This document shows positions 2,406 through 32,551 of a DNA stretch of 37,519 nucleotides, piece after piece. Every line of letters starts with the position of its first letter. The first letter of the stretch is position 1. The notes beneath the pieces are model-generated. The model saw nothing but the letters and a program-made list of their open reading frames with translations. It ran no database searches and had not been told where the DNA came from. Both the position numbers and the translations under genes were made by a program. The stretch covers positions 1 through 37,519 of the forward strand of contig JAITMK010000130.1 in assembly GCA_031277415.1 (NCBI GenBank), read 5' to 3'. Origin of the DNA: Azoarcus sp. (GTDB taxonomy: Bacteria > Pseudomonadota > Gammaproteobacteria > Burkholderiales > Rhodocyclaceae).

Positions 2406-3278
2406 CTAGAAACCCAGGCTCGCAAGTAGATCGTCAACCTGCCCCTGGCTGGTCACGACATCATCACGGCCTTTGCCGTCAATGACCGGCCCATTGAGCA
2501 GGGTACCTGTTTTCTCGGAACGCATTTCTTCCGGCGCAGACTCGATGAGGATGCCAAGCAATTGGGATTCGAGCGCCTGCGCAATTTCAAGAACTTTCTT
2601 GATAACCTGTCCGGTCAAATCCTGAAAATCCTGAGCCATGATGATTTCGAGCAATTGAGCATCGATCACATGACCGTTCCCGGCAGCCGATCCGAGAAAC
2701 GCGCGTGTATCGATGGACAATGCCTTGAATTCTTCGACTGAGAGCTGGTTATCGAACAACTTATCCCAACTCGCGCACAGGGCCTCGGATTCCGTCTGTA
2801 TTTTCACAGCCAGCGGCTTGGCAATATCCGTCGCGTTGAGTACCTTGCTGGCTGCCTGTTCCGTCATCTGCGCAACATAGGTCAAACGCTGACGGGCATC
2901 GGGTACTGAATCGGCGACTGCCTGCAATTTGCCGTCCAATCCAAGTTCGATCAGCATGTCGTGCAACTTGCGCGTCATCTTGCCGATGCGATTGAATATC
3001 ATGCTGTCGCGATCATCCGACTCTTCTTCGGCCTCCGCGCCATCGGTTTCCGGGGGGGCGTACTTGCCAGCCTCCGAGTCAAACAAGGACTGGAGTTCGT
3101 CATTGTCATCCCCGTTGTTCGCACTTGAAACAGCCTTTGGCGCTGACGCCGGAATCGGAGGAACCGGCGCTGATTCAACTGGCGCTGATTCTTCCGGATT
3201 CCCGCCCGCCGCAATATTGTCGAACAAGGACTGGAGTTCGTCCGTGTCTTCTGTTTCGTCGATTTTCCGTTTCACCAC
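2406..3278 (-). CDS. cheZ: protein phosphatase CheZ (extended N-terminus)
   Basis: IIMAQDFQDLTGQVIKKV active-site segment and C-terminal CheY-binding-like QVDDLLASLGF; between cheY and cheA. Confidence 0.92.
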   Translation of the reverse strand: MVKRKIDETEDTDELQSLFDNIAAGGNPEESAPVESAPVPPIPASAPKAVSSANNGDDNDELQSLFDSEAGKYAPPETDGAEAEEESDDRDSMIFNRIGKMTRKLHDMLIELGLDGKLQAVADSVPDARQRLTYVAQMTEQAASKVLNATDIAKPLAVKIQTESEALCASWDKLFDNQLSVEEFKALSIDTRAFLGSAAGNGHVIDAQLLEIIMAQDFQDLTGQVIKKVLEIAQALESQLLGILIESAPEEMRSEKTGTLLNGPVIDGKGRDDVVTSQGQVDDLLASLGF

Positions 3279-3341
3279 CTTCGGCTCCCGTCACTTTCCG
3301 TGTTCGTTCAGGTTTCCGTTATCTTTCATCAGTCATCAGGC

Positions 3342-3740
3342 TCAGGCAGCTTTCATTTTTTCGAATATTTTTTCCAGCTTCTCCGCCAGGGTTGCCGCCG
3401 TAAACGGCTTGACGATGTATCCGCTTGCCCCGGCCTGCGCAGCGGCAATGATGTTTTCCTTTTTGGCCTCGGCTGTAATCATCAGCACCGGCAAATGTTT
3501 GAGTTGCGGCGAACTGCGAATCTTTTGCAACAATGTAAGCCCGTCCATGTTGGGCATGTTCCAGTCTGAAACGACGAAATTGTATTCCGACGGCATTGTC
3601 TCCAGTTTTTGAAAGGCCACCACGCCATCCTCGGCTTCGTCCGCATTGGTGTACCCCAGCTCTTTGAGCAGGTTGCGGACGATGCGCCGCATCGTCGAGA
3701 AGTCATCCACAATCAGAAATTTCGTTTTGGGATCGCCCAT
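3342..3740 (-). CDS. cheY: chemotaxis response regulator CheY
   Basis: 132 aa single receiver: [45 protein letters not shown]. Confidence 0.95.
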
Positions 3741-3780
3741 TTGTTTTCTCCGGTCTCTCTCTCAGGGACGTATCGCCGTT

Positions 3781-4758
3781 TTACCCCTGATGCCCTCTTT
3801 GGAGGAGCGGACGCAAAGTTTGCGCAAGCACCTCGGCATCAAATTTCGCCACATAGGCATCCACGCCAACACGCTTACCCATCGCCCGGTTGGCCTCGGA
3901 GGATAGCGACGAATGCATGACCACGGGAATACCGTTGAAACGGTCATCGCCTTTGATGTTTCGCGTCAGCACATAACCGTCCATCTCCGGCATCTCGGCA
4001 TCGACCAGAATAAGATCGATTTCATCCGAGACATGCCGACCGGTCTGCTGCGCATGGCTGGCTATCCCTTCGAGACGAGTCCATGCCTCCAGTCCGTTCA
4101 TGGCGTGTTTGTGGTGCACACCGAGTTTGTCGAGCACTTCGCTGATCTTGCGCCGCGCCACGGAGGAATCGTCGACGAAGAACACGTTGTAAGCATTGCC
4201 GCCATGCAGAGGATCGATATTGCCGACGACCGCTTCTCCGAACGTGCTGGCAAGGATGGTTTCGACATCGAGAATGGATACCAGTCTGCCGTTGGGCAGT
4301 TCCGTAATTGCAGTGATGTAGCTATGCATATTGCTCGAAACATTTTCCGGCGCGCGTACCTTGTCCCATTCCACGCGGATGATGCGGTCGACCTCCTCAA
4401 CGATGAAAGCCAGGGTACGCTGGCTGTATTCCGTCACCATCATCGCGCCGCCAAGCGGCGCATCGGTTTTCGCCAGACCCAGAACCTTGGCAAGCGAAAG
4501 CACCGGGATCACATTACCACGCAAGGAAATCAGCCCTTCCACACCGCGCGGCATGTTGGGGGTTTTGGTAATGAAAGGTCTGGCCGAAACTTCCCTTACC
4601 TTGAATACATTGATGCCGAACGTCTCATTCGTTCCCAGCGAGAACAGGAGGATTTCCATGAGATTCGATCCGGCGAGCATGGTTCGCCCGTCGACTGCTT
4701 CAAACAGCGCCTGATCGGTTTTGACTGCAACGTCGTTTTTTAACTCCGAATTCGACAT
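3781..4758 (-). CDS. cheV: chemotaxis protein CheV (CheW-REC), copy 1
   Basis: CheW-like domain (ISLRGNVIPVLSLAKVLGL) plus receiver (VFFVDDSSVARRKI, LVDAEMPEMDGY). Confidence 0.92.
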   Translation of the reverse strand: MSNSELKNDVAVKTDQALFEAVDGRTMLAGSNLMEILLFSLGTNETFGINVFKVREVSARPFITKTPNMPRGVEGLISLRGNVIPVLSLAKVLGLAKTDAPLGGAMMVTEYSQRTLAFIVEEVDRIIRVEWDKVRAPENVSSNMHSYITAITELPNGRLVSILDVETILASTFGEAVVGNIDPLHGGNAYNVFFVDDSSVARRKISEVLDKLGVHHKHAMNGLEAWTRLEGIASHAQQTGRHVSDEIDLILVDAEMPEMDGYVLTRNIKGDDRFNGIPVVMHSSLSSEANRAMGKRVGVDAYVAKFDAEVLAQTLRPLLQRGHQG

Positions 4759-4779
4759 AACCTCACCTCATTCCTGCTA

Positions 4780-5790
4780 TTACCCTGCTGGAATATCTTC
4801 GGATTGCTCAGAATCGCCAAGAATCAAGCGCCGCAGGGTTTGTGACAAACGTAACGGCTCAAACTTGGGAACGTATTCGTCCACGCCAACCGAAAGACCG
4901 AGTTGCTGGTTCGACATTCCCGACAACGAGGAATGCATGACCACCGGCACACCTGCAAAGCGCGAATCGGATTTGATATGGCGGGTCAGGATGTAACCGT
5001 CCATTTCCGGCATTTCGACATCGGTCAGTACCAGGCTGAGCACATCGGACACCTTCTGCCCGGCGGAGGCGGCTGAATCAGCGATTTTCTTCAGTTCTTC
5101 CCAGGCTTTGCGGCCATTGATCGCACCGATATATCTCACTCCCATCGTGTCGAGCGTTTGCATGATTTGTTTGCGGGCTATCGAAGAATCGTCGGCAAAC
5201 ACCACCATGCAATTTTCGGCGTCGTCAATCGGCTTGATTTCCTTGTAAATCAACATATCTTCGTCATAGCGCGTAGTTTCTGAAAGCACTTTTTCGACAT
5301 CGAGCAGCATGACGAGCCGGTTATCCGCCAATTCAGTCACCGCCGTGACCAAACCACCCATGTGCGCAACCAGCATATCCGGCGGCACCCGCATCTGCGA
5401 CCAGTCGAGCCTGAGAATGGTATCGACCGCTTCAACCAGGAACCCCTGGGTATGGCCGTTGTATTCGGTCACGATCATGATGTCGCGCGCCGACTCCTCC
5501 CCTATCCCGGCGTACTTTGCCAGATCAACCACGGGAACCAGCACGCCGCGCAGGCTGACCATGCCCTTGACTGCATCAGGCATTTCGGGCGCGGCGGTAA
5601 TTTCGGGCGTGCGCATGACTTCACGCACTTTGAACACATTGATTCCAAATGTTTCGCGCCGTCCACTCCGATGATCCTCGCCCAACGTGAATAGCAGTAT
5701 TTCAAGCTTGTTCGTCCCCGCAAGCCTGGTACGGGCATCGATATTCTTCAGCAAATCGGACATTTTGCATTCTCCGCCGAAAGCGCCCAT
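4780..5790 (-). CDS. cheV: chemotaxis protein CheV (CheW-REC), copy 2
   Basis: CheW-like domain plus receiver (VFADDSSIARKQIMQTL, VLTDVEMPEMDGY); paralogue of the adjacent gene. The start may be downstream at MSDLLKNIDARTRLAGTNKLE (about 5763). Confidence 0.92.
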   Translation of the reverse strand: MGAFGGECKMSDLLKNIDARTRLAGTNKLEILLFTLGEDHRSGRRETFGINVFKVREVMRTPEITAAPEMPDAVKGMVSLRGVLVPVVDLAKYAGIGEESARDIMIVTEYNGHTQGFLVEAVDTILRLDWSQMRVPPDMLVAHMGGLVTAVTELADNRLVMLLDVEKVLSETTRYDEDMLIYKEIKPIDDAENCMVVFADDSSIARKQIMQTLDTMGVRYIGAINGRKAWEELKKIADSAASAGQKVSDVLSLVLTDVEMPEMDGYILTRHIKSDSRFAGVPVVMHSSLSGMSNQQLGLSVGVDEYVPKFEPLRLSQTLRRLILGDSEQSEDIPAG

Positions 5791-5936
5791 GCACCTGGTC
5801 AGCGTGACCAGTTGCAGTGGCTTGCATTTTTTTGTTTCTGAACAACCCGTTTTCGAAAATATTGATTAAAAATTTTCATCCGATCATGCGGGAGAAAACA
5901 CAACGACATTACCAATCAGGAATAGACTCCTCGCGA

Positions 5937-6650
5937 TCATACGCGCTGACACTCAGCATGACTGTGAAATCCGCCTCCCAATCGGTGCAATACACGCGCG
6001 GCAATTTCGGTAATTGGCGCAACTTCCTTCAATGCGCCAAGCAATGCCGCTTCACGCGGCATTCCATAGACGACGCATGTCGCCTGATCCTGCCCTATCG
6101 TCCAGGCTCCCATCTGCATCATATGCAGCAAGCCGACAGCGCCATCCTTGCCCATGCCGGTGAGGATGACACCAATCGCGGCACGCCCGACCTGTTCCGC
6201 CGCAGAATGAAACAGCACATCGACCGACGGCCGATGATGATTGACGGGGTCTGAGCGAGACAATTCACATTGATAACCGCCGGAGGAGACTTTTTTTATC
6301 AGCAGATGTGAATGTCCGGGGGCCAGATAAGCCACACCAGGCTCAATCATCTCGCCCCGGACGGCTTCTTTCACATTTATGTGGCTCAACAGATCGAGGC
6401 GGCGCGCGAACGATCCGGTGAACATTTCCGGCATGTGCTGCGCCATGAGAATCGGTGGAATGTCTGTCGGCAACCGGGTCAGTACCTCACGGATAGCTTC
6501 GGTTCCGCCCGTCGAGGCGCCAATGAAGATGATAGTGCCCGAATAGGGAACGATCCGCGGACGCGGCGTATTTGTCTCCGTCGAGGAATCTCGCCAAGCC
6601 TGGGGCAGATTCAGTATCGTTTTGCCTGGCAAGTTCGGCTCCCGGATCAA
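5937..6650 (-). CDS. cheB: CheB-type protein-glutamate methylesterase, catalytic domain only (no receiver)
   Basis: [12 protein letters not shown] (Ser), [10 protein letters not shown] (His), [10 protein letters not shown] (Asp). Likely TTG start overlapping the cheR stop (TTGA). Confidence 0.88.
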
Positions 6651-7618
6651 TTCAATGGTGAATCCAACCGCACATATACCGTGCGGCCGATGGACCGCAA
6701 CAAATCGGTTGCGTGCATGAAACTCTCTGAATGCCCGGCGTAGAGCCGCCCATCCTGCCGCAATAGCGGAACAAAGCGTTTCAAAATGCCGTATTGCGTT
6801 GGCCTGTCAAAATAAATCATGACATTTCGGCAGAAAATCGCGTCGAACGGCCCCTGAACCGGCCACGCAGGAGACAGCAAATTGATACGCCGAAAGCGGA
6901 TGAGCCGCTGCAATTCGGTCCGCACCGTATAGGAACCATCTCTGCCGGGAGCAGGAATGAAATATTGTGATAAATGCCTGGACTCCATACGATCCAGGCG
7001 GTCGCGCCGGTAGACGCCTTTTTCAGCCTGCGCGAGCACCTCGGTATCGATGTCACTGCCAATGATTTCCACCGGCGGGGTCAGGGATGAAAAAACATCG
7101 CAGGCCGTAATCGCCAATGAATACGGCTCTTCTCCTGTCGATGAGGCGCAGCACCATATCCTGATAGGTCGTTTTTCTTTTATCTCCTTGATCTGATTGG
7201 TTAAAATCTGAAAATGGTGCGATTCACGGAAAAATGAAGTCAGGTTAGTTGTCAACGAGTTGATGAAAGTTTCCCACTCGTTGCGATCCTGTTCGAGCCG
7301 TCGCAAGTACTGGGCGAAGGTTCGGTCGCCGCATGTTCGCAACCTCCGCGCCAACCGGCTGTAAACCATGTCCTGCTTGGAAGGTGACAGGGCAATCCCC
7401 GCATTTTCATGCAGCAAAGCACGGACACGCTCGAAATCGGCATTGGTAAATTCGAATTCACGTCCATGACCCGGCAGCGCGGCGCCAACAGACTTCATGG
7501 GTTCGGCGTCGGCAGCACGGGTTCCCGGAAGAATGACGGATGACCTGGATTGAGAATTCTCCGGCCCGGAGCGTAGCCCTGGGCTTGGGAAATCGCGGGA
7601 AGACGGAGTAAATGCCAT
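6647..7618 (-). CDS. cheR: chemotaxis protein methyltransferase CheR
   Basis: 323 aa; [22 protein letters not shown]-binding motif, [20 protein letters not shown]. Confidence 0.95.
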
Positions 7619-7628
7619 GACAAAACCT

Positions 7629-8633
7629 TCACGGTGCAGGAGTTATGCCGGGCACTGAATTCATCCCGTTCTCGACGTCACGGTTCAATTCCATCGCTGC
7701 CGGAACCGTTTCCACCGGAGTTTCTGGCGATTGACCGATCAATTTACTGCGGATGGCCTCTTCGGATTCCTTGTTCAGCACGATGATGCTGATACGCCGG
7801 TTGATCGGACTCATTGGGTCGTCGTTATCCAGATGGACGGTATCGGCCAATCCCACCACGCGCACCACCTTGTTCAAGGTCAGGCCACCGGCAATCAACT
7901 CACGCCGTGCCGCGTTGGCGCGATTTGCCGAAAGTTCCCAATTTGAAAAGCCCCGCTCACCGCCCGCATACTGTGCCGAATCGGTATGGCCCGAAAGGCT
8001 GATGCTGTTATCGAACCCATTGAGCGTCTGGCCGATGGTACGTAGCAGTTCCCTGCTATACGGGCGCAATGTATCACTTGAGATGTCGAACATCGGACGG
8101 TTCTTTTCATCGACGATCTGAATGCGCAGACCTTCCGAGATGATGTCGATCAGTATCTGGTTTCTGAGCATGCGCAACTGGGTATCGGCTCCGATAAGCG
8201 CGTCGATCCTTCCTTTAAGATCGATCAGCCGGACCTGCTCACGCTGCTTTTCCAGTTCCTGCCCTTCAGGACTGCCTCCGCCTTTCTGCCTCTGGCGCGC
8301 GGCATCGAGATTGATTGTCCGCGTCGAGGGTGTATCGCCGCGCCGTACCTGCCCCAGCTTGCGGGACAAATCATCGCCCCCCCCCTGGATGATGCTCGAA
8401 CTGTCGCCCGAACCTTGTCCGCCCTGCATCGCCAACTTCAGCGGACTCCTGAAATATTCGGCGATACCTTTGAGATCTCCCTGGGCAGTTGAGCCAAGCA
8501 GCCACATCATCAGAAAAAACGCCATCATCGCGGTCACAAAGTCGGCATAGGCGATTTTCCATGCCCCTCCGTGCGATTGGTCAGCGGTTTTCTTGACGCG
8601 TTTGACAATGATGGGCTGCTGAGGGTCGGTCAT
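7629..8633 (-). CDS. motB: flagellar motor protein MotB
   Basis: HGGAWKIAYADFVTAMMAFFLMMWLLGST plug/TM; OmpA-like peptidoglycan-binding domain (LSGHTDSAQY, NWELSANRANAARREL). Confidence 0.95.
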   Translation of the reverse strand: MTDPQQPIIVKRVKKTADQSHGGAWKIAYADFVTAMMAFFLMMWLLGSTAQGDLKGIAEYFRSPLKLAMQGGQGSGDSSSIIQGGGDDLSRKLGQVRRGDTPSTRTINLDAARQRQKGGGSPEGQELEKQREQVRLIDLKGRIDALIGADTQLRMLRNQILIDIISEGLRIQIVDEKNRPMFDISSDTLRPYSRELLRTIGQTLNGFDNSISLSGHTDSAQYAGGERGFSNWELSANRANAARRELIAGGLTLNKVVRVVGLADTVHLDNDDPMSPINRRISIIVLNKESEEAIRSKLIGQSPETPVETVPAAMELNRDVENGMNSVPGITPAP

Positions 8634-8646
8634 CGTTCATCTCCCG

Positions 8647-9501
8647 TCAGCCTTTGCGGTTCTTGAGTTCCCGTTCGAGTTCCAGGAAAGTGGGCCGGTC
8701 ATTGGCATACAGCACCTTGCGGCCAAACTCCACTGCAACCTGCGGGGCATAGCCATTCATGCTCGCCAGCAGCACTACCTTTATCACCTGGAAGATCTTG
8801 CCGCTTTCTTCTACCTTTTGTTTGATCTGAGTTGCCAGCGGACAAATGAACCCGTATGAAAGAAGGATACCCAGGAAAGTACCCACCAGCGCCCCGGCAA
8901 TCATTTTGCCCAGCACGGCAGGCGGCTCCCCTACCGCGCCCATCGTATTGACGACCCCCATTACACAAACCACGATACCGAAGGCCGGCATCGCCTGCCC
9001 GATTTCGTCAATTGCATGCGGAGCCTGATGCGCTTCCCGGTGATGGGTTTCGATCTCCATGTCCATCAGGTTTTCGATCTCGAACGCATTGAGATTTCCG
9101 CCCACCATCATGCGCAGATAGTCGCATGTAAATTCGACGACATGATGATCGGAGGCTATGCGCGGATATTTCGAAAAAATGGGGCTGGAGTCCGGTGTCT
9201 CGACATCACTTTCTATCGACATCAAGCCTTCCTTGCGTACCTTGGCGAGCAACTCGTAAAGCAACGAGAGCAGATCGACATAAAGGTCGCGGTTGTACTT
9301 CGAGCCTTTGAACGGAAGCCCTATCGCCCTGACAGAAGATTTAATTACCTTGGAACCATTGCTGGCAACGAAGCCGCCAATGAACAGCCCAAAGATGGCT
9401 GCGTACTCGGACGGCACCCAAAGCGCAATGACACTGCCATGCATCGCGAACGGCACCAGCACGGAAGCAAGGACAATGACGTAACCAATGAGCAGATACA
9501 C
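8647..9501 (-). CDS. motA: flagellar motor stator protein MotA
   Basis: 284 aa; SVIALWVPSEYAAIFGLFIGGFVASN, MPAFGIVVCVMGVVNTMGAV, ALVGTFLGILLSYGFICPLA. Confidence 0.95.
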   Translation of the reverse strand: MYLLIGYVIVLASVLVPFAMHGSVIALWVPSEYAAIFGLFIGGFVASNGSKVIKSSVRAIGLPFKGSKYNRDLYVDLLSLLYELLAKVRKEGLMSIESDVETPDSSPIFSKYPRIASDHHVVEFTCDYLRMMVGGNLNAFEIENLMDMEIETHHREAHQAPHAIDEIGQAMPAFGIVVCVMGVVNTMGAVGEPPAVLGKMIAGALVGTFLGILLSYGFICPLATQIKQKVEESGKIFQVIKVVLLASMNGYAPQVAVEFGRKVLYANDRPTFLELERELKNRKG

Positions 9502-13846: not shown

Positions 13847-14212
13847 ATGAATTCATCGAATCAAACCGCAACACAGCCGCGCATCCTCAGTCTGGCAGAA
13901 GGCCGTGCCTTGCTCGCGCTCTACGAAGCAATGGTCGAAACGGCGCGCACGCACGACTGGGACCGGTTGACCGAAATCGAGCGGCAAGCCGCAGAACTGC
14001 GCGATATGGCCATTTCTCGCCCACCTGCATCCAATGACGTGGAAGATGTAAAAGAATTGTCGGTGTTGCTTACCCAGATCCAGCGTCTCGATCATGAAAT
14101 ACGCAATCAGGTGGAACCGGCGTGCGAGCAGGCGCGTCAGCAACTCTCCGTCGAAGTCAGGGATCGTACCGTGCGCAAGGCTTACAGCAACCCGGACGCC
14201 CCTGGAGGCTGA
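13847..14212 (+). CDS. fliT: FliT-like flagellar protein
   Basis: 121 aa helical protein (LSLAEGRALLALYEAMVETARTHDWDRLTEIERQAAELRDM) immediately upstream of fliK. Confidence 0.65.
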   Translation: MNSSNQTATQPRILSLAEGRALLALYEAMVETARTHDWDRLTEIERQAAELRDMAISRPPASNDVEDVKELSVLLTQIQRLDHEIRNQVEPACEQARQQLSVEVRDRTVRKAYSNPDAPGG

Positions 14213-27596: not shown

Positions 27597-27630
27597 TATT
27601 ACGCGGGATACTGGGTAATGCAGGCATTCC

Positions 27631-27930
27631 CTAATGCAGCACGCTCGGAGGAGGGCTTGCATCAGGGAGCGGACGCGTCATACGCATGATTTCGACAGAA
27701 TTACGAAGCGCTTTTATGACTGAAGCGACACCCGCCACATAGGCTTCCGGTTTATCCTGGTCGATCACTTGAGCGTTGTATTTTGTGAGGCCATCCAGAA
27801 TGTGCTGCCAGTCCAGACGATGCGCAAGCAGCGTGCCGCATACGGACATGAGAACATTCATCTGAGCTTGCTGCATTACCAGCAAATTTTTTAGGTTGGT
27901 TTCATCATCATTCATTTCATTTCCCGCCAC
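27631..27930 (-). CDS. hypothetical protein, 99 aa
   Basis: ORF MAGNEMNDDETNLKNLLVMQQAQMNVLMSVCGTLLAHRLDWQHIL...; plausible coding, no family recognised; stop lies in the CTAA flank of element D. Confidence 0.5.
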   Translation of the reverse strand: MAGNEMNDDETNLKNLLVMQQAQMNVLMSVCGTLLAHRLDWQHILDGLTKYNAQVIDQDKPEAYVAGVASVIKALRNSVEIMRMTRPLPDASPPPSVLH

Positions 27931-28256
27931 GATCTACATGAAAACGTAATATATCGCCCATACACCCTTATATTAGATATTTTTTTTGTATTTTTTAGTG
28001 TGGAAATCCCTTAGCACAAATGGACAGGTGAAAATAAATCCATATGTATTTTTTCTATCATCATTAACTACGACATTTCGATACGAGAGCTTTTCGCGGG
28101 AAATGTGTGCCATTTTTTTTGGCGTCAATAAACAAGGCGAAGAAACGTTGTATAAAAAATATATTTTGGAATGGCTATGATGATTAGAGCGGTTTTTGTT
28201 TAGTCGTGCACAAATCATGTGTGTACAAACCCATGGACAACAGGCTGTCACTCTAA

Positions 28257-28386
28257 GGAACCTCTGCATTACCCTATATCCACCGTTTGTCATCCTGCGC
28301 GAAGTCGCAGGATCCATGCGGCGTCTGGATTCTGCGACTTCGCTTCGCTGCGCGCAGAATGACAGGAGGGGTTTTGCAGATGTTCC
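28257..28386. mobile_element. MITE-like element B (130 bp), flanked by CTAA
   Basis: GGAACCTCTGCATTACCC ... GGGGTTTTGCAGATGTTCC; CTAA at 28253-28256 and 28387-28390; reverse complement closely matches element A. Confidence 0.8.
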
Positions 28387-28390
28387 CTAA

Positions 28391-28498
28391 GGATTCTCTG
28401 CAAAACCCCATTCCAATTGCCGAGCGTAGGGGCGACCTGTGGTCGCCCGGTGAATTGCGTGAATGAATGTGCAACAGGAGGAGTAATGCAGACCTTCC
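28391..28498. mobile_element. MITE-like element C (108 bp), shares a CTAA with element B
   Basis: GGATTCTCTGCAAAACCCC ... GAGTAATGCAGACCTTCC; CTAA at 28387-28390 and 28499-28502; contains GTAGGGGCGACCTGTGGTCGCCC. Confidence 0.75.
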
Positions 28499-28584
28499 CT
28501 AACGCAATAAGCTACCTGGCGTGCCGTAGGTACTGTTATCGGCGTCAAGTTCCTTGCATAGTTAGCGACAAAAACATTCGCTGC

Positions 28585-30297
28585 TTATTGCAGGGTTGTC
28601 TCATCACGTTTCATACAATCAGGTTTGGAACCTGAAACTACAGGGTAATTATTGCAGATTTCGTTACTCCGTTTCACGTATGCTTCTAAAAGACAATCTT
28701 TGTTATCTTTACATTCGTCGCGACGTTTGAACCATTCGATTTGGTCACGGACTAATTTGTTTTGCAACCCACCAATGTCAGAGCCCATAAAGGCATCGTA
28801 GTTATCAGCCAGGATATTCCTCCAACTACTAAGGAGACCGCCAGCTTTACAAACTGTCTGCTCGGCAAGACTAAATTTTTCTGCGTCATAGCAATTATAA
28901 TCAGGTCTATGACAAATAGGTCCTGGGCCGGAAACTACAGGGTAAATATTGCAGATTTCGTAATTCCGCATCATGTATGCTTCTAAAAGACAATCCTCGT
29001 TATCTTTGCATTCGTTGCGACGTTTTACCCATTCGACTTGGTCATGGATCAATTTGTTTTGCAGTCCATCAATGTCAGAATTTTGAAAAGCTTCGTAGTT
29101 TTGACCGAGGGTAAGGTCCCAGCTATAAAGAAGACCTTTGTCATTACAAATTGTCTGTTCAGCAAGATTAATATTACTTGAGTCATGACGGTTATAACAA
29201 TAAACCATTGGGTAAGTAACAGCATTTCTACAATAAGGTTTGGGGCCGGAAACTACCGGGTAGTTATTGCAGAGGTCACTAATCCGTTCGCCGTACATAT
29301 AAGAAAGGCATCCAGAGCTGTCTTTGCATTTATTACGGCGTTTTAGCCATTCGTCCTGATCACGGATCAATTTGTTACGCAATTCACCAATGTCAGCGGC
29401 CAGAAGGGCTTTGTAGTTTCTGGCGAGGGTTGAGTCATAACCTGAAAGTCTTTCAGACCTGCAAATTGTTTGCTCAGTAAAATCAAGAATTTCTGGATTA
29501 GAGCAATCGAAACTGGCGAAAGGCTTAGGATTGCTGCAATAAGGTTCAAAACCGGAAACTACCGGATAGTTATTGCAGACCTCGTCAGTCCGCTCCCTGT
29601 ATGCACGAAAAAGACAATCTTCATTATCTTTGCATTCATTGCGGCGTTTTATCCATTCTCGCTGGTCGCTAGTTAATTTGTCGCGCAAATTGCCAATATT
29701 AGCGGAACGAAGGGCTTTGTAGTTCGAAGCAAGGGTTAAGTCCCAACTAGAAAGCAAATAATTATTACAAATTATCTGCTCAGTTTGATTTAACTTTTTT
29801 GGATTAGAGCAATCAAAGTTAGGGAAAAAACGGCCATGGCAGTCAAATGGCTCTTTTTTTCTGCCAGAATAACTCACCGAGCACTCGCTAGGAGATAGAT
29901 AACCTGTTTTATCCGCCTTGTAAATAATTATTGTCTCACTTTGTTCCCTAGGGTACCAACTGGACGCTACTATTTGAACTAGCTCTCCTTTATCGGAATA
30001 AGACACGGATGTTTCATCTGCGCTAAAGTCAGCTATAAGACAGTACTTTCCAGTTTTCTCCTTTTTATAATACGATCTACCCCAATCTTTGGGTGGTGTG
30101 CGATCAATTACGTACACATAAGCTCCATAATCTATTACTTGTATATTTTCATCATCCTCCAGTTTCACTAATTCGTCATAAGAAGGGAAGCAAAATTTTT
30201 GATACTCCCCTACAGCCCCGTCATCGGCATAAGATGACGCTGCCAAGTAAAGCATTAGAAGGGGTGTGCAGAACACTTTACGGACGTTAAAAATCAT
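28585..30297 (-). CDS. secreted/periplasmic protein with four tandem LprI (DUF1311)-like Cys-rich repeats
   Basis: Signal peptide MIFNVRKVFCTPLLMLYLAASSYADD; repeats of about 100 aa, each with EQxxC, LxxNYxAxxxxxIxxLxxKLxxDQxEWxKRRxxCKDxxxCL, CNxYPVVSG, C. Start trimmed to ATG at 30295-30297. Confidence 0.85.
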   Translation of the reverse strand: MIFNVRKVFCTPLLMLYLAASSYADDGAVGEYQKFCFPSYDELVKLEDDENIQVIDYGAYVYVIDRTPPKDWGRSYYKKEKTGKYCLIADFSADETSVSYSDKGELVQIVASSWYPREQSETIIIYKADKTGYLSPSECSVSYSGRKKEPFDCHGRFFPNFDCSNPKKLNQTEQIICNNYLLSSWDLTLASNYKALRSANIGNLRDKLTSDQREWIKRRNECKDNEDCLFRAYRERTDEVCNNYPVVSGFEPYCSNPKPFASFDCSNPEILDFTEQTICRSERLSGYDSTLARNYKALLAADIGELRNKLIRDQDEWLKRRNKCKDSSGCLSYMYGERISDLCNNYPVVSGPKPYCRNAVTYPMVYCYNRHDSSNINLAEQTICNDKGLLYSWDLTLGQNYEAFQNSDIDGLQNKLIHDQVEWVKRRNECKDNEDCLLEAYMMRNYEICNIYPVVSGPGPICHRPDYNCYDAEKFSLAEQTVCKAGGLLSSWRNILADNYDAFMGSDIGGLQNKLVRDQIEWFKRRDECKDNKDCLLEAYVKRSNEICNNYPVVSGSKPDCMKRDETTLQ

Positions 30298-30496
30298 AGT
30301 GCACCCTAGCCATCTTGACAGGAGAAAGTGAAGCATTATAGTCCGTCGGAAACGTACTTCTGGTCGGCCCGGAATAGTCAATGTTCGCGGCCTTCATAGA
30401 GAGGTTGCCGGGGCAGTCGATGTTGCCATCTTTGAGCCGGATATACGCGCCGCAGCAGGCTTCCGGGTTCATGCCGCGCCCATGCTGGGCGCGCAT
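30287..30496 (-). pseudogene. VgrG C-terminal (DUF2345-like) remnant
   Basis: CCGAYIRLKDGNIDCPGNLSMKAANIDYSGPTRSTFPTDYN resembles the VgrG tail pattern (YIRLxxGNIxxxxPGxxxxKAAxxxxxGP). Only the tail remains; an in-frame TGA and the pccA terminator lie upstream. Confidence 0.6.
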
Positions 30497-30499
30497 GCA

Positions 30500-30531
30500 A
30501 CAAGGGCAGCCAGTAAACTGGCTGCCCTTGT
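30500..30531 (-). terminator. hairpin downstream of the pcc operon
   Basis: ACAAGGGCAGCCAG-TAAA-CTGGCTGCCCTTGT: 14-bp perfect stem about 26 bp after the biotin carboxylase stop; weak T-run. Confidence 0.6.
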
Positions 30532-30556
30532 ATCGACTTCAGAGAACTGTTCGAGA

Positions 30557-32551
30557 TTACTCGAATTCGATGATGACTTCGTCTACCGACAGGCTTGCGC
30601 CTGGCTGGACAACGATCTTTTTCACTTTGACATCGTGCTCGGCTCTGAGGATGTTTTCCATCTTCATGGCTTCGATGACGACGAGTTTTTCGCCCGCCTT
30701 GACTTCCTGGCCTTCGACCGCCGCAACCTCACGCAGTAGTCCCGGCATCGGGGAGATGAGGAATTTGGAGAGGTCTGGCGGCGCTTTTTCGGGCATGAGC
30801 GAGAGCAGGTGCGCCGCGCGCGGCGTCATCACGATGGGCGCGATTTGCAGGCCGAAGTGGGAGATGCGGTAGGTGATGCCCTGCCGTTCGACTTGCAGGC
30901 AGATCGGCTGGCCGTTGACGGTTCCGGAGAAAAGCTGGTCGCCAAAGCTCCAATCGGAAACGATGTCGTAGCTCTTGTCGCCGTGGGTGATGGTCATGCC
31001 GCCCTTGGTTTGCGAAGCGACGAGCGGGTAGTGTTTGCCGTTTATCACGGCAACCCAGTCGCTTGTTATCTTGCGGCCAAAGCCCGGATGCTGGCCGCCG
31101 ATTTTCATGACGCGGTAGATGTAACGCAGGCGTGCAAAGGCGGCTATTGCGGCAAGCAGGGCAGGATCATCGTGCGGAACCATCGAGGAGTCGAAGCCGT
31201 CGGCGTACTCTTCGGCAATGAAGCCGGTGTTGAAAACGCCGGACATGAAGCGCGGGTGCTGCATCAGGGCGGCCTGGAACGGGATGTTGCTGCTGATGCC
31301 GCGAATGACGAAGCCGTTGAGCGCATCGCCCATCCGCTCGATGGCCTGCTTGCGGGTGGCGCCGTGGACGATGAGCTTGGCAATCATCGAGTCGTAGTAC
31401 ATCGAAATTTCGCCGCCTTCATAGACGCCGGTGTCGACCCGCACGGATTTGCTTTCGGCGTCCGGCGCGCGGAATTTGACGAGGCGACCCGTAGAGGGAA
31501 GGAAGCCCCGGAATGGGTCTTCCGCGTTGATCCGGCATTCCATCGCCCATCCGTTGATCTTGACGTCTTTTTGGGTGATGCCGAGTTTTTCTCCGGCAGC
31601 GATGCGGATCATCTGTTCGACGAGATCGAGGCCGGTGATGCACTCGGTGACGGGGTGTTCTACCTGGAGACGGGTGTTCATTTCCAGGAAGTAGAAGCCT
31701 TTGTCCGCGCCGACGACGAATTCCACCGTACCGGCGGATTCGTATTGCACGGAGCGGGCAAGCGCCACTGCCTGTTCTCCCATTGCCTTGCGGGTGGCTG
31801 CGTCGATGAATGGCGAGGGCGCTTCTTCGACGACTTTCTGATGACGGCGCTGGATCGAGCATTCGCGCTCGTTGAGATGAACGTAGTTGCCGTGGGAGTC
31901 GCCGAGGATCTGAATTTCGATATGACGCGGTTCCTGGACGAATTTTTCGATGAAAACACGGTCGTCGCCAAAGGAATTCTTGGCCTCATTGACGCAGGAG
32001 GCGAAGCCTTCGTGGGCTTCCTTGTCGTTCCAGGCAACGCGCAGACCCTTGCCGCCGCCCCCGGCGGAGGCTTTTATCATGACGGGGTAGCCGATTTTTT
32101 TAGCGATTTTCACCGCTTCATCGGGGCCGGAAATGGGTTCGTTATGGCCGGGAATGATGTTGACGCCCGCTTCGTGCGCAAGTTTTTTCGACGCGATCTT
32201 GTCGCCCATCTTGGCGATGGAGTAGTGTTTCGGCCCGATGAACTTGATGCCTTCTTCTTCGATGCGGCGGGCAAATTCTTCGTTTTCTGACAAGAATCCG
32301 TAGCCGGGATGAACCGCTTCCGCGCCGGTTTCCTTGCAGGCGGCGATGATTTTGTCCATGACCAGATAGGACTCTTTGGAGGGCGAGGGGCCGATAAAGA
32401 CGGCTTCATCGGCCAGCTTGACGTGGAGCGAACGATGATCGGCCTCGGAATAGACGGCCACGGTCTTGATGCCCATGCGGCTGGCGGTCTTGATGACGCG
32501 GCATGCTATTTCACCGCGATTCGCAATCAGGATTTTTTTGAACATTTGCAT
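30557..32551 (-). CDS. pccA: acetyl/propionyl-CoA carboxylase alpha subunit (biotin carboxylase + BCCP)
   Basis: KILIANRGEIACRVIKTA; biotin carboxylase motifs (SAGGGGKGLRV, FLEMNTRLQVEHPVTE); C-terminal VIEAMKMEN biotinylation site. Confidence 0.95.
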   Translation of the reverse strand: MQMFKKILIANRGEIACRVIKTASRMGIKTVAVYSEADHRSLHVKLADEAVFIGPSPSKESYLVMDKIIAACKETGAEAVHPGYGFLSENEEFARRIEEEGIKFIGPKHYSIAKMGDKIASKKLAHEAGVNIIPGHNEPISGPDEAVKIAKKIGYPVMIKASAGGGGKGLRVAWNDKEAHEGFASCVNEAKNSFGDDRVFIEKFVQEPRHIEIQILGDSHGNYVHLNERECSIQRRHQKVVEEAPSPFIDAATRKAMGEQAVALARSVQYESAGTVEFVVGADKGFYFLEMNTRLQVEHPVTECITGLDLVEQMIRIAAGEKLGITQKDVKINGWAMECRINAEDPFRGFLPSTGRLVKFRAPDAESKSVRVDTGVYEGGEISMYYDSMIAKLIVHGATRKQAIERMGDALNGFVIRGISSNIPFQAALMQHPRFMSGVFNTGFIAEEYADGFDSSMVPHDDPALLAAIAAFARLRYIYRVMKIGGQHPGFGRKITSDWVAVINGKHYPLVASQTKGGMTITHGDKSYDIVSDWSFGDQLFSGTVNGQPICLQVERQGITYRISHFGLQIAPIVMTPRAAHLLSLMPEKAPPDLSKFLISPMPGLLREVAAVEGQEVKAGEKLVVIEAMKMENILRAEHDVKVKKIVVQPGASLSVDEVIIEFE

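What the first reader, a model, noticed from the sequence alone, without database searches (positions are those of the whole stretch)
30287..30540. Apparent VgrG C-terminal remnant translationally overlapping the tetra-LprI gene
Directly upstream of the LprI-repeat gene, same strand, is a frame encoding CCGAYIRLKDGNIDCPGNLSMKAANIDYSGPTRSTFPTDYN..., which matches my knowledge of the DUF2345/VgrG tail of type VI secretion spikes. Its TAA (30287-30289) lies inside the LprI gene whose ATG is 30295-30297 (TATGATTTTTAA), a typical coupled arrangement. VgrG loci commonly carry effector and immunity genes downstream, so the LprI protein may be VgrG-island cargo left after deletion of the vgrG body and any effector. 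The upstream break falls at the pccA terminator, and no other T6SS gene is visible in the window.
Basis: partly seen in the sequence, partly recalled or inferred. Interest (0 to 1): 0.75.

Follow-up and report, generated by a model that had tools for sequence, protein, structure and literature searches.

The report
VgrG scar beside orphan immunity gene
A short leftover of the tip protein of a bacterial weapon (the type VI secretion spike) sits just in front of a gene for a secreted protein with four lysozyme-inhibitor domains, most likely an antidote kept after the weapon gene and its toxin were lost; it is a clear new example of a process already described in other bacteria.

Summary
Frame and coordinates are right: TAA 30289-30287, LprI ATG 30297-30295, 11-nt overlap. 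Residues encoded at about 30460-30365 are the C-terminal tip of a VgrG DUF2345 domain. A profile of 13 VgrG tails from the same genus scores the frame 41.5 bits (E=5.8e-12); the next best of 760 window frames scores 3.5 and the best of 2000 shuffles 6.1. The piece is about 31 residues, lacks two residues present in all 13 intact copies, and sits directly behind the pccA terminator: a scar, not a working gene. The genome has a T6SS cluster and another VgrG, but no other DUF2345. On seven of about 15 LprI contigs in the genus, LprI genes adjoin or closely follow peptidoglycan-hydrolase-type effector genes, overlapping them by 13-25 nt in four cases. Best reading: an orphan T6SS immunity gene (signal peptide, N-terminal domain, four LprI domains) left by an eroded vgrG-effector-immunity island, as in Vibrio cholerae orphan immunity arrays. 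The four-LprI architecture is the unusual part. Inhibition itself is inferred.

The parts
30557..32551 (-). pccA (biotin-dependent acyl-CoA carboxylase alpha subunit), intact host gene upstream of the scar
   Evidence: 664-aa ORF; found in most congeners at 82-94% identity, each with a different downstream sequence
30500..30531 (-). inverted repeat behind pccA, 15-bp perfect stem, probable terminator
   Evidence: the repeat finder I7. The consensus terminator scan did not list it; the T run after it is weak
30365..30460 (-). VgrG DUF2345 C-terminal remnant (corresponds to aa 870-902 of the 929-aa VgrG of G004:C9), with a two-residue in-frame deletion
   Evidence: tblastn 72.7% identity, E about 2e-8; congener-tail HMM 41.5 bits; Pfam DUF2345 E=0.00097
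30287..30364 (-). continuation of the same frame: about 25 residues without similarity, ending in TAA inside the LprI gene; origin unknown (VgrG tail, effector tip or former intergenic DNA)
28585..30297 (-). gene for a 570-aa secreted protein: signal-peptide-like start, N-terminal domain, four LprI-type repeats; putative orphan T6SS immunity protein
   Evidence: Pfam LprI 1.2e-11, two scored stretches; four DNA repeats of ~300 nt spacing; repeat dN/dS 0.27-0.54; relatives beside T6SS effectors
29527..29826 (-). LprI repeat 1
29221..29520 (-). LprI repeat 2
28900..29217 (-). LprI repeat 3 (start of the repeat diverged)
28603..28896 (-). LprI repeat 4

Best explanation
This is the eroded end of a vgrG-effector-immunity island. 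The vgrG body and the effector gene are gone; about 31 codons of the VgrG tip remain as a scar, and the immunity gene is retained. The LprI protein is exported to the periplasm (signal peptide read from the sequence), where its LprI domains most likely bind and block peptidoglycan-cleaving effectors (lysozyme/endolysin type) injected by the T6SS of kin that still carry such an island (inferred). The stop/start overlap is either the old effector-immunity junction or a by-product of the deletion. The scar itself is not expected to make a functional product.
For: Remnant identity. Intact counterpart: G004:C9 has vgrG (929 aa; GPD, OB, T6SS_Vgr, DUF2345), then a 1069-aa effector with a PWe2-endolysin-like C-terminus (E=1.5e-8; TseP C-domain 8XCL E=0.009), then an N-domain+LprI gene, a 270-aa duplicate effector C-terminus (58% identity) and two more LprI-type genes. 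G007:C121: a related effector overlaps an N-domain+LprI gene by 16 nt. Further effector-LprI neighbours: G004:C42 (Hcp-vgrG-Phage_lysozyme effector-LprI), G004:C64, G013:C143 (Pesticin-domain protein overlapping LprI), G016:C59 (Hcp-LysM protein-LprI), G000:C59 (LysM protein overlapping LprI). Own genome: T6SS cluster present, no other DUF2345, no relative of the G004:C9 effector. LprI repeats under purifying constraint.
Against: Identity of the window protein to its relatives is low (21-31% overall, 35-41% in LprI), and only about half of the LprI contigs of the genus carry effectors; LprI genes outside the genus showed no vgrG or endolysin-like effector nearby, so LprI alone does not prove immunity. 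The intact G004 island is not shown to be at the same chromosomal site. The window is from a draft assembly; reads could not be inspected. The fold prediction was unusable.
Confidence: 0.78

Rival explanations
1. The cassette arrived already truncated: a vgrG tail plus LprI fragment was captured behind pccA by recombination (acquired defence), rather than an in situ island eroding. The protein would work the same way; only the history differs.
For: AT-rich LprI gene (41% GC against 58% for pccA); pccA downstream sequence differs in every congener examined; G004:C9 carries a 128-bp pccA fragment beside its vgrG that is closer to pccA of other congeners (up to 89.7%) than to G004's own (83.6%), so DNA moves between pccA and vgrG regions.
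Against: No integrase or terminal repeats were found around the cassette. The two histories give the same present structure.
Confidence: 0.35
2. The LprI protein is a general periplasmic or envelope protein (or a host-lysozyme inhibitor), and the VgrG scar beside it is incidental.
For: LprI is widespread outside T6SS; family-level LprI loci lack vgrG or endolysin-like effector neighbours. LprI of M. tuberculosis inhibits lysozyme (cited in PMC12135965).
Against: In this genus N-domain+LprI proteins lie beside lysozyme-type effectors (G004, G007), often overlapping them, and here a VgrG scar lies directly upstream.
Confidence: 0.15
3. The 69-aa frame is a functional leader whose translation couples expression of the LprI gene.
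For: 11-nt stop/start overlap.
Against: No conserved stand-alone relatives; in-frame deletion against 13 homologues; no clear promoter ahead of the frame.
Confidence: 0.05
4. Assembly chimera: a vgrG repeat end joined wrongly to pccA.
For: Many vgrG copies lie at contig ends in these draft genomes.
Against: The scar is interior to a 37.5-kb contig, has private changes, and no other DUF2345 copy exists in the assembly.
Confidence: 0.05

Closest known systems
Orphan immunity gene arrays left by sequential displacement of T6SS effector genes in Vibrio cholerae (PMC5361080)
   Same: Immunity genes kept after loss of the effector, next to vgrG-type genes
   Different: Here no effector or spike gene is left at the site, only a ~31-codon VgrG scar, and the locus is outside any T6SS cluster
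Salmonella Dublin LysM/LysMI pair (SED_RS06235/SED_RS06230; PMC8867033)
   Same: Peptidoglycan-hydrolase effector paired with a periplasmic LprI-domain immunity candidate; the own-genome C59 pair (LysM protein + LprI) looks like the same type
   Different: 146-aa single-LprI protein with its effector present; the window has four LprI domains plus an N-domain and no effector
TseP lysozyme/amidase T6SS effector (PMC11893102, PDB 8XCL)
   Same: The C-terminus of the G004:C9 effector is a weak sequence match (E=0.009); related effectors in G007 and G004:C42 carry an EF-hand-like match, as TseP does
   Different: Different immunity protein (TsiP); the effector is absent from the window
WHIX effectors with DUF1311/LprI neighbours (PMC12135965)
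   Same: LprI-domain genes reported as likely immunity genes flanking T6SS effectors
   Different: The WHIX domain was not tested here

Membership tests
VgrG (TssI) spike protein, DUF2345 class | Sequence match to the DUF2345 C-terminus | tested here: met
   (weak Pfam)
VgrG (TssI) spike protein, DUF2345 class | GPD, OB and needle core domains | tested here: not met
   Absent; homology begins just behind the pccA terminator and the frame is 69 aa. It is a remnant, not a VgrG
LprI (PF07007) family | Pfam score above gathering threshold | tested here: met
   45.3 bits against 22
T6SS immunity protein | Encoded next to a cognate effector | tested here: not met
   No effector in the window and no relative of the G004:C9 effector in the genome; relatives in G004 and G007 do meet it. 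Hence 'orphan'
T6SS immunity protein | Export to the compartment of the toxin target (periplasm) | tested here: inconclusive
   N-terminus MIFNVRKVFCTPLLMLYLAASSYADD reads as a signal peptide by eye; no predictor was run
T6SS immunity protein | Binds and neutralises the effector | not testable with these tools
   needs co-expression or binding assay
Orphan immunity locus (V. cholerae type) | Effector lost, immunity gene retained intact, remnant of the upstream genes | tested here: met
   that the retained gene is an immunity gene is itself inferred

The most novel reading that the evidence does not exclude
The tetra-LprI protein is a multivalent or multi-specific orphan immunity protein: internal duplication of the LprI domain after loss of the cognate effector widened protection to several different lysozyme-type T6SS effectors of competitors.
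Probability: 0.15. Interest if true: 0.6.

Novelty: new variant of a known kind. Interest (0 to 1): 0.4.

Why it matters
It adds a case, with an identifiable molecular scar, of a T6SS island shrinking to its immunity gene in a little-studied betaproteobacterial genus, and it shows that in this genus LprI-domain proteins repeatedly lie beside T6SS lysozyme/LysM-type effectors. The four-LprI architecture gives a testable question: does repeat duplication broaden or strengthen immunity?

Tried and rejected
Pfam alone was too weak to decide the VgrG match, so a genus-specific profile was built. Looking for the intact island directly behind pccA in 15 congeners found no vgrG, effector or LprI gene there, though several contigs end within about 600 nt. 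Family-level LprI loci showed no vgrG or endolysin-like effector link. Single-sequence AlphaFold2 of the 570-aa protein: pLDDT 42, not used. A first tblastn of the loci failed silently because of a malformed query and was repeated. The promoter scan gave no convincing sigma-70 site for the LprI gene and no more sites than shuffles. Comparing the unexplained ~24-residue tail by eye with effector C-termini showed no resemblance.

Full report
What is in the sequence. On the minus strand the order is pccB, pccA (32551-30557), a perfect 15-bp inverted repeat (30531-30500), a short open frame, and a 570-codon gene (30297-28585). The short frame ends ...GTG CAC TAT GAT TTT TAA (TAA 30289-30287), and the ATG of the long gene is at 30297-30295, so the two overlap by 11 nt in different frames.

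Is the VgrG match real? Pfam's DUF2345 model scores the frame at 19.4 bits, E=0.00097, below its cut-off. In the 22 genomes of the genus, strong matches to the peptide are C-termini of VgrG proteins; the best is 69% identical over 35 residues (G004:C9, E=7e-10). A profile of 13 congener VgrG tails gives 41.5 bits (E=5.8e-12); the next best of 760 stop-to-stop frames in the window gets 3.5 bits and the best of 2000 shuffles of the peptide 6.1 bits. Homology covers aa 870-902 of a 929-residue VgrG, window 30460-30365. The remnant lacks two residues (in the position of 'IH') that all 13 homologues have, and its last ~24 residues match nothing. It is a decaying scar.

The genome. The window is contig C116 of a 2.63-Mb draft genome. 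Named pccA relatives are Rhodocyclaceae, Zoogloeaceae and neighbours, the best only 76% identical. The genome has a T6SS: TssB/TssC on C85, TssK, TssM, TssF and a ClpV-like ATPase on C144, and a VgrG of another class with a C-terminal extension on C143. It has no other DUF2345 domain and no relative of the G004:C9 effector. A second vgrG fragment lies at the end of C149.

Intact counterparts. G004:C9 carries vgrG (GPD, OB, T6SS_Vgr, DUF2345), a 1069-aa protein whose C-terminus matches endolysins (PWe2 endolysin 1.5e-8; [quoted passage not shown] 8XCL identified in PMC11893102). In G007:C121 a related effector overlaps an N-domain+LprI gene by 16 nt. Other LprI genes of the genus: G004:C42 (Hcp-vgrG-effector with Phage_lysozyme domain-small ORF-LprI), G004:C64 (vgrG tail-effector-three genes-LprI), G013:C143 (Pesticin-domain protein overlapping LprI), G016:C59 (Hcp-LysM protein-LprI-LysM fragment-LprI), and G000:C59 in the window's own genome (LysM protein overlapping LprI). 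The overlaps in G007:C121, G013:C143, G016:C59 and G000:C59 are 13-25 nt, so a short stop/start overlap in front of an LprI gene is the usual layout of an effector-immunity junction here, and the window's 11 nt fits it. The other LprI contigs (about seven besides the window) have no detected effector neighbour; some start at a contig end, and G013:C180 is a run of three LprI genes without an effector, which looks like a further orphan array. Outside the genus, family-level LprI genes showed no vgrG or endolysin-like effector nearby.

The long gene. Its product has a signal-peptide-like start, an N-terminal domain (shared at about 30% with G013 proteins) and four LprI repeats of ~100 residues; Pfam LprI 1.2e-11. 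Relatives found in the genus have one LprI domain each. Repeats differ from each other with dN/dS 0.27-0.54, so they were kept as protein. The gene is AT-rich (41% GC, pccA 58%), as is common for acquired immunity genes (general knowledge).

Interpretation. The most economical reading is that a vgrG-effector-immunity island stood here, or arrived here in pieces, and lost the vgrG body and the effector, keeping the immunity gene. Retention of immunity genes after effector displacement is described in Vibrio cholerae (PMC5361080), and LprI-domain proteins have been proposed as immunity proteins of T6SS peptidoglycan effectors in Salmonella Dublin (PMC8867033) and beside WHIX effectors (PMC12135965). 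Shown: scar identity, intact loci in relatives, absence of the effector, an intact LprI gene. Inferred: periplasmic location, inhibition of lysozyme-type effectors, protection from kin. Whether erosion was in situ or before arrival is open; a 128-bp pccA fragment beside vgrG in G004:C9, closer to other congeners' pccA than to G004's own, hints at exchange between pccA and vgrG regions but is not proof of a shared site.

Verdict. It is a new variant of a known kind of locus; the tetra-LprI architecture is the part worth an experiment.

Noticed in passing
L049 (G004:C9) 13903-14030: 128-bp pccA fragment (aa 574-616) about 500 bp upstream of vgrG; closer to pccA of G020 and G015 (89.7%, 87.5%) than to G004's own pccA (83.6%), suggesting acquisition with the island.
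   Followed up: partly
L103 (G000:C149) 8428-8684: Second vgrG fragment in the window's own genome (aa 217-302, about 70% identity, broken frame) at a contig end, behind two paralogous ~340-aa genes with signal-peptide-like starts.
   Followed up: partly
L102 (G000:C143) 2448-6536: VgrG with a C-terminal extension followed by two 80%-identical genes, with a copy of the last ~35 residues of that VgrG between them: another displacement-like duplication.
   Followed up: partly
L050 (G013:C180) 3860-6906: Three tandem N-domain+LprI genes with no effector nearby; looks like an orphan immunity array.
   Followed up: partly
L240 (G000:C59) 4257-5425: LysM-domain protein overlapping an LprI gene by 13 nt in the window's own genome: candidate intact effector-immunity pair of the Salmonella LysM/LprI type.
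   Followed up: partly
window 30315-30342 (+): 11-of-12 sigma-70-like site (TTGACA-16-TATAGT) on the opposite strand at the scar, pointing towards the pccA 3' end; the scan found no more sites than shuffles, so probably chance.
   Followed up: no
window 27601-28513: Short interspersed repeats (GTAATGCAG..TTCCCTAA type and a near-palindrome at 28299-28343) downstream of the LprI gene.
   Followed up: no
window 27631-27930 (-): 99-aa ORF without Pfam match between the repeats downstream of the LprI gene.
   Followed up: no
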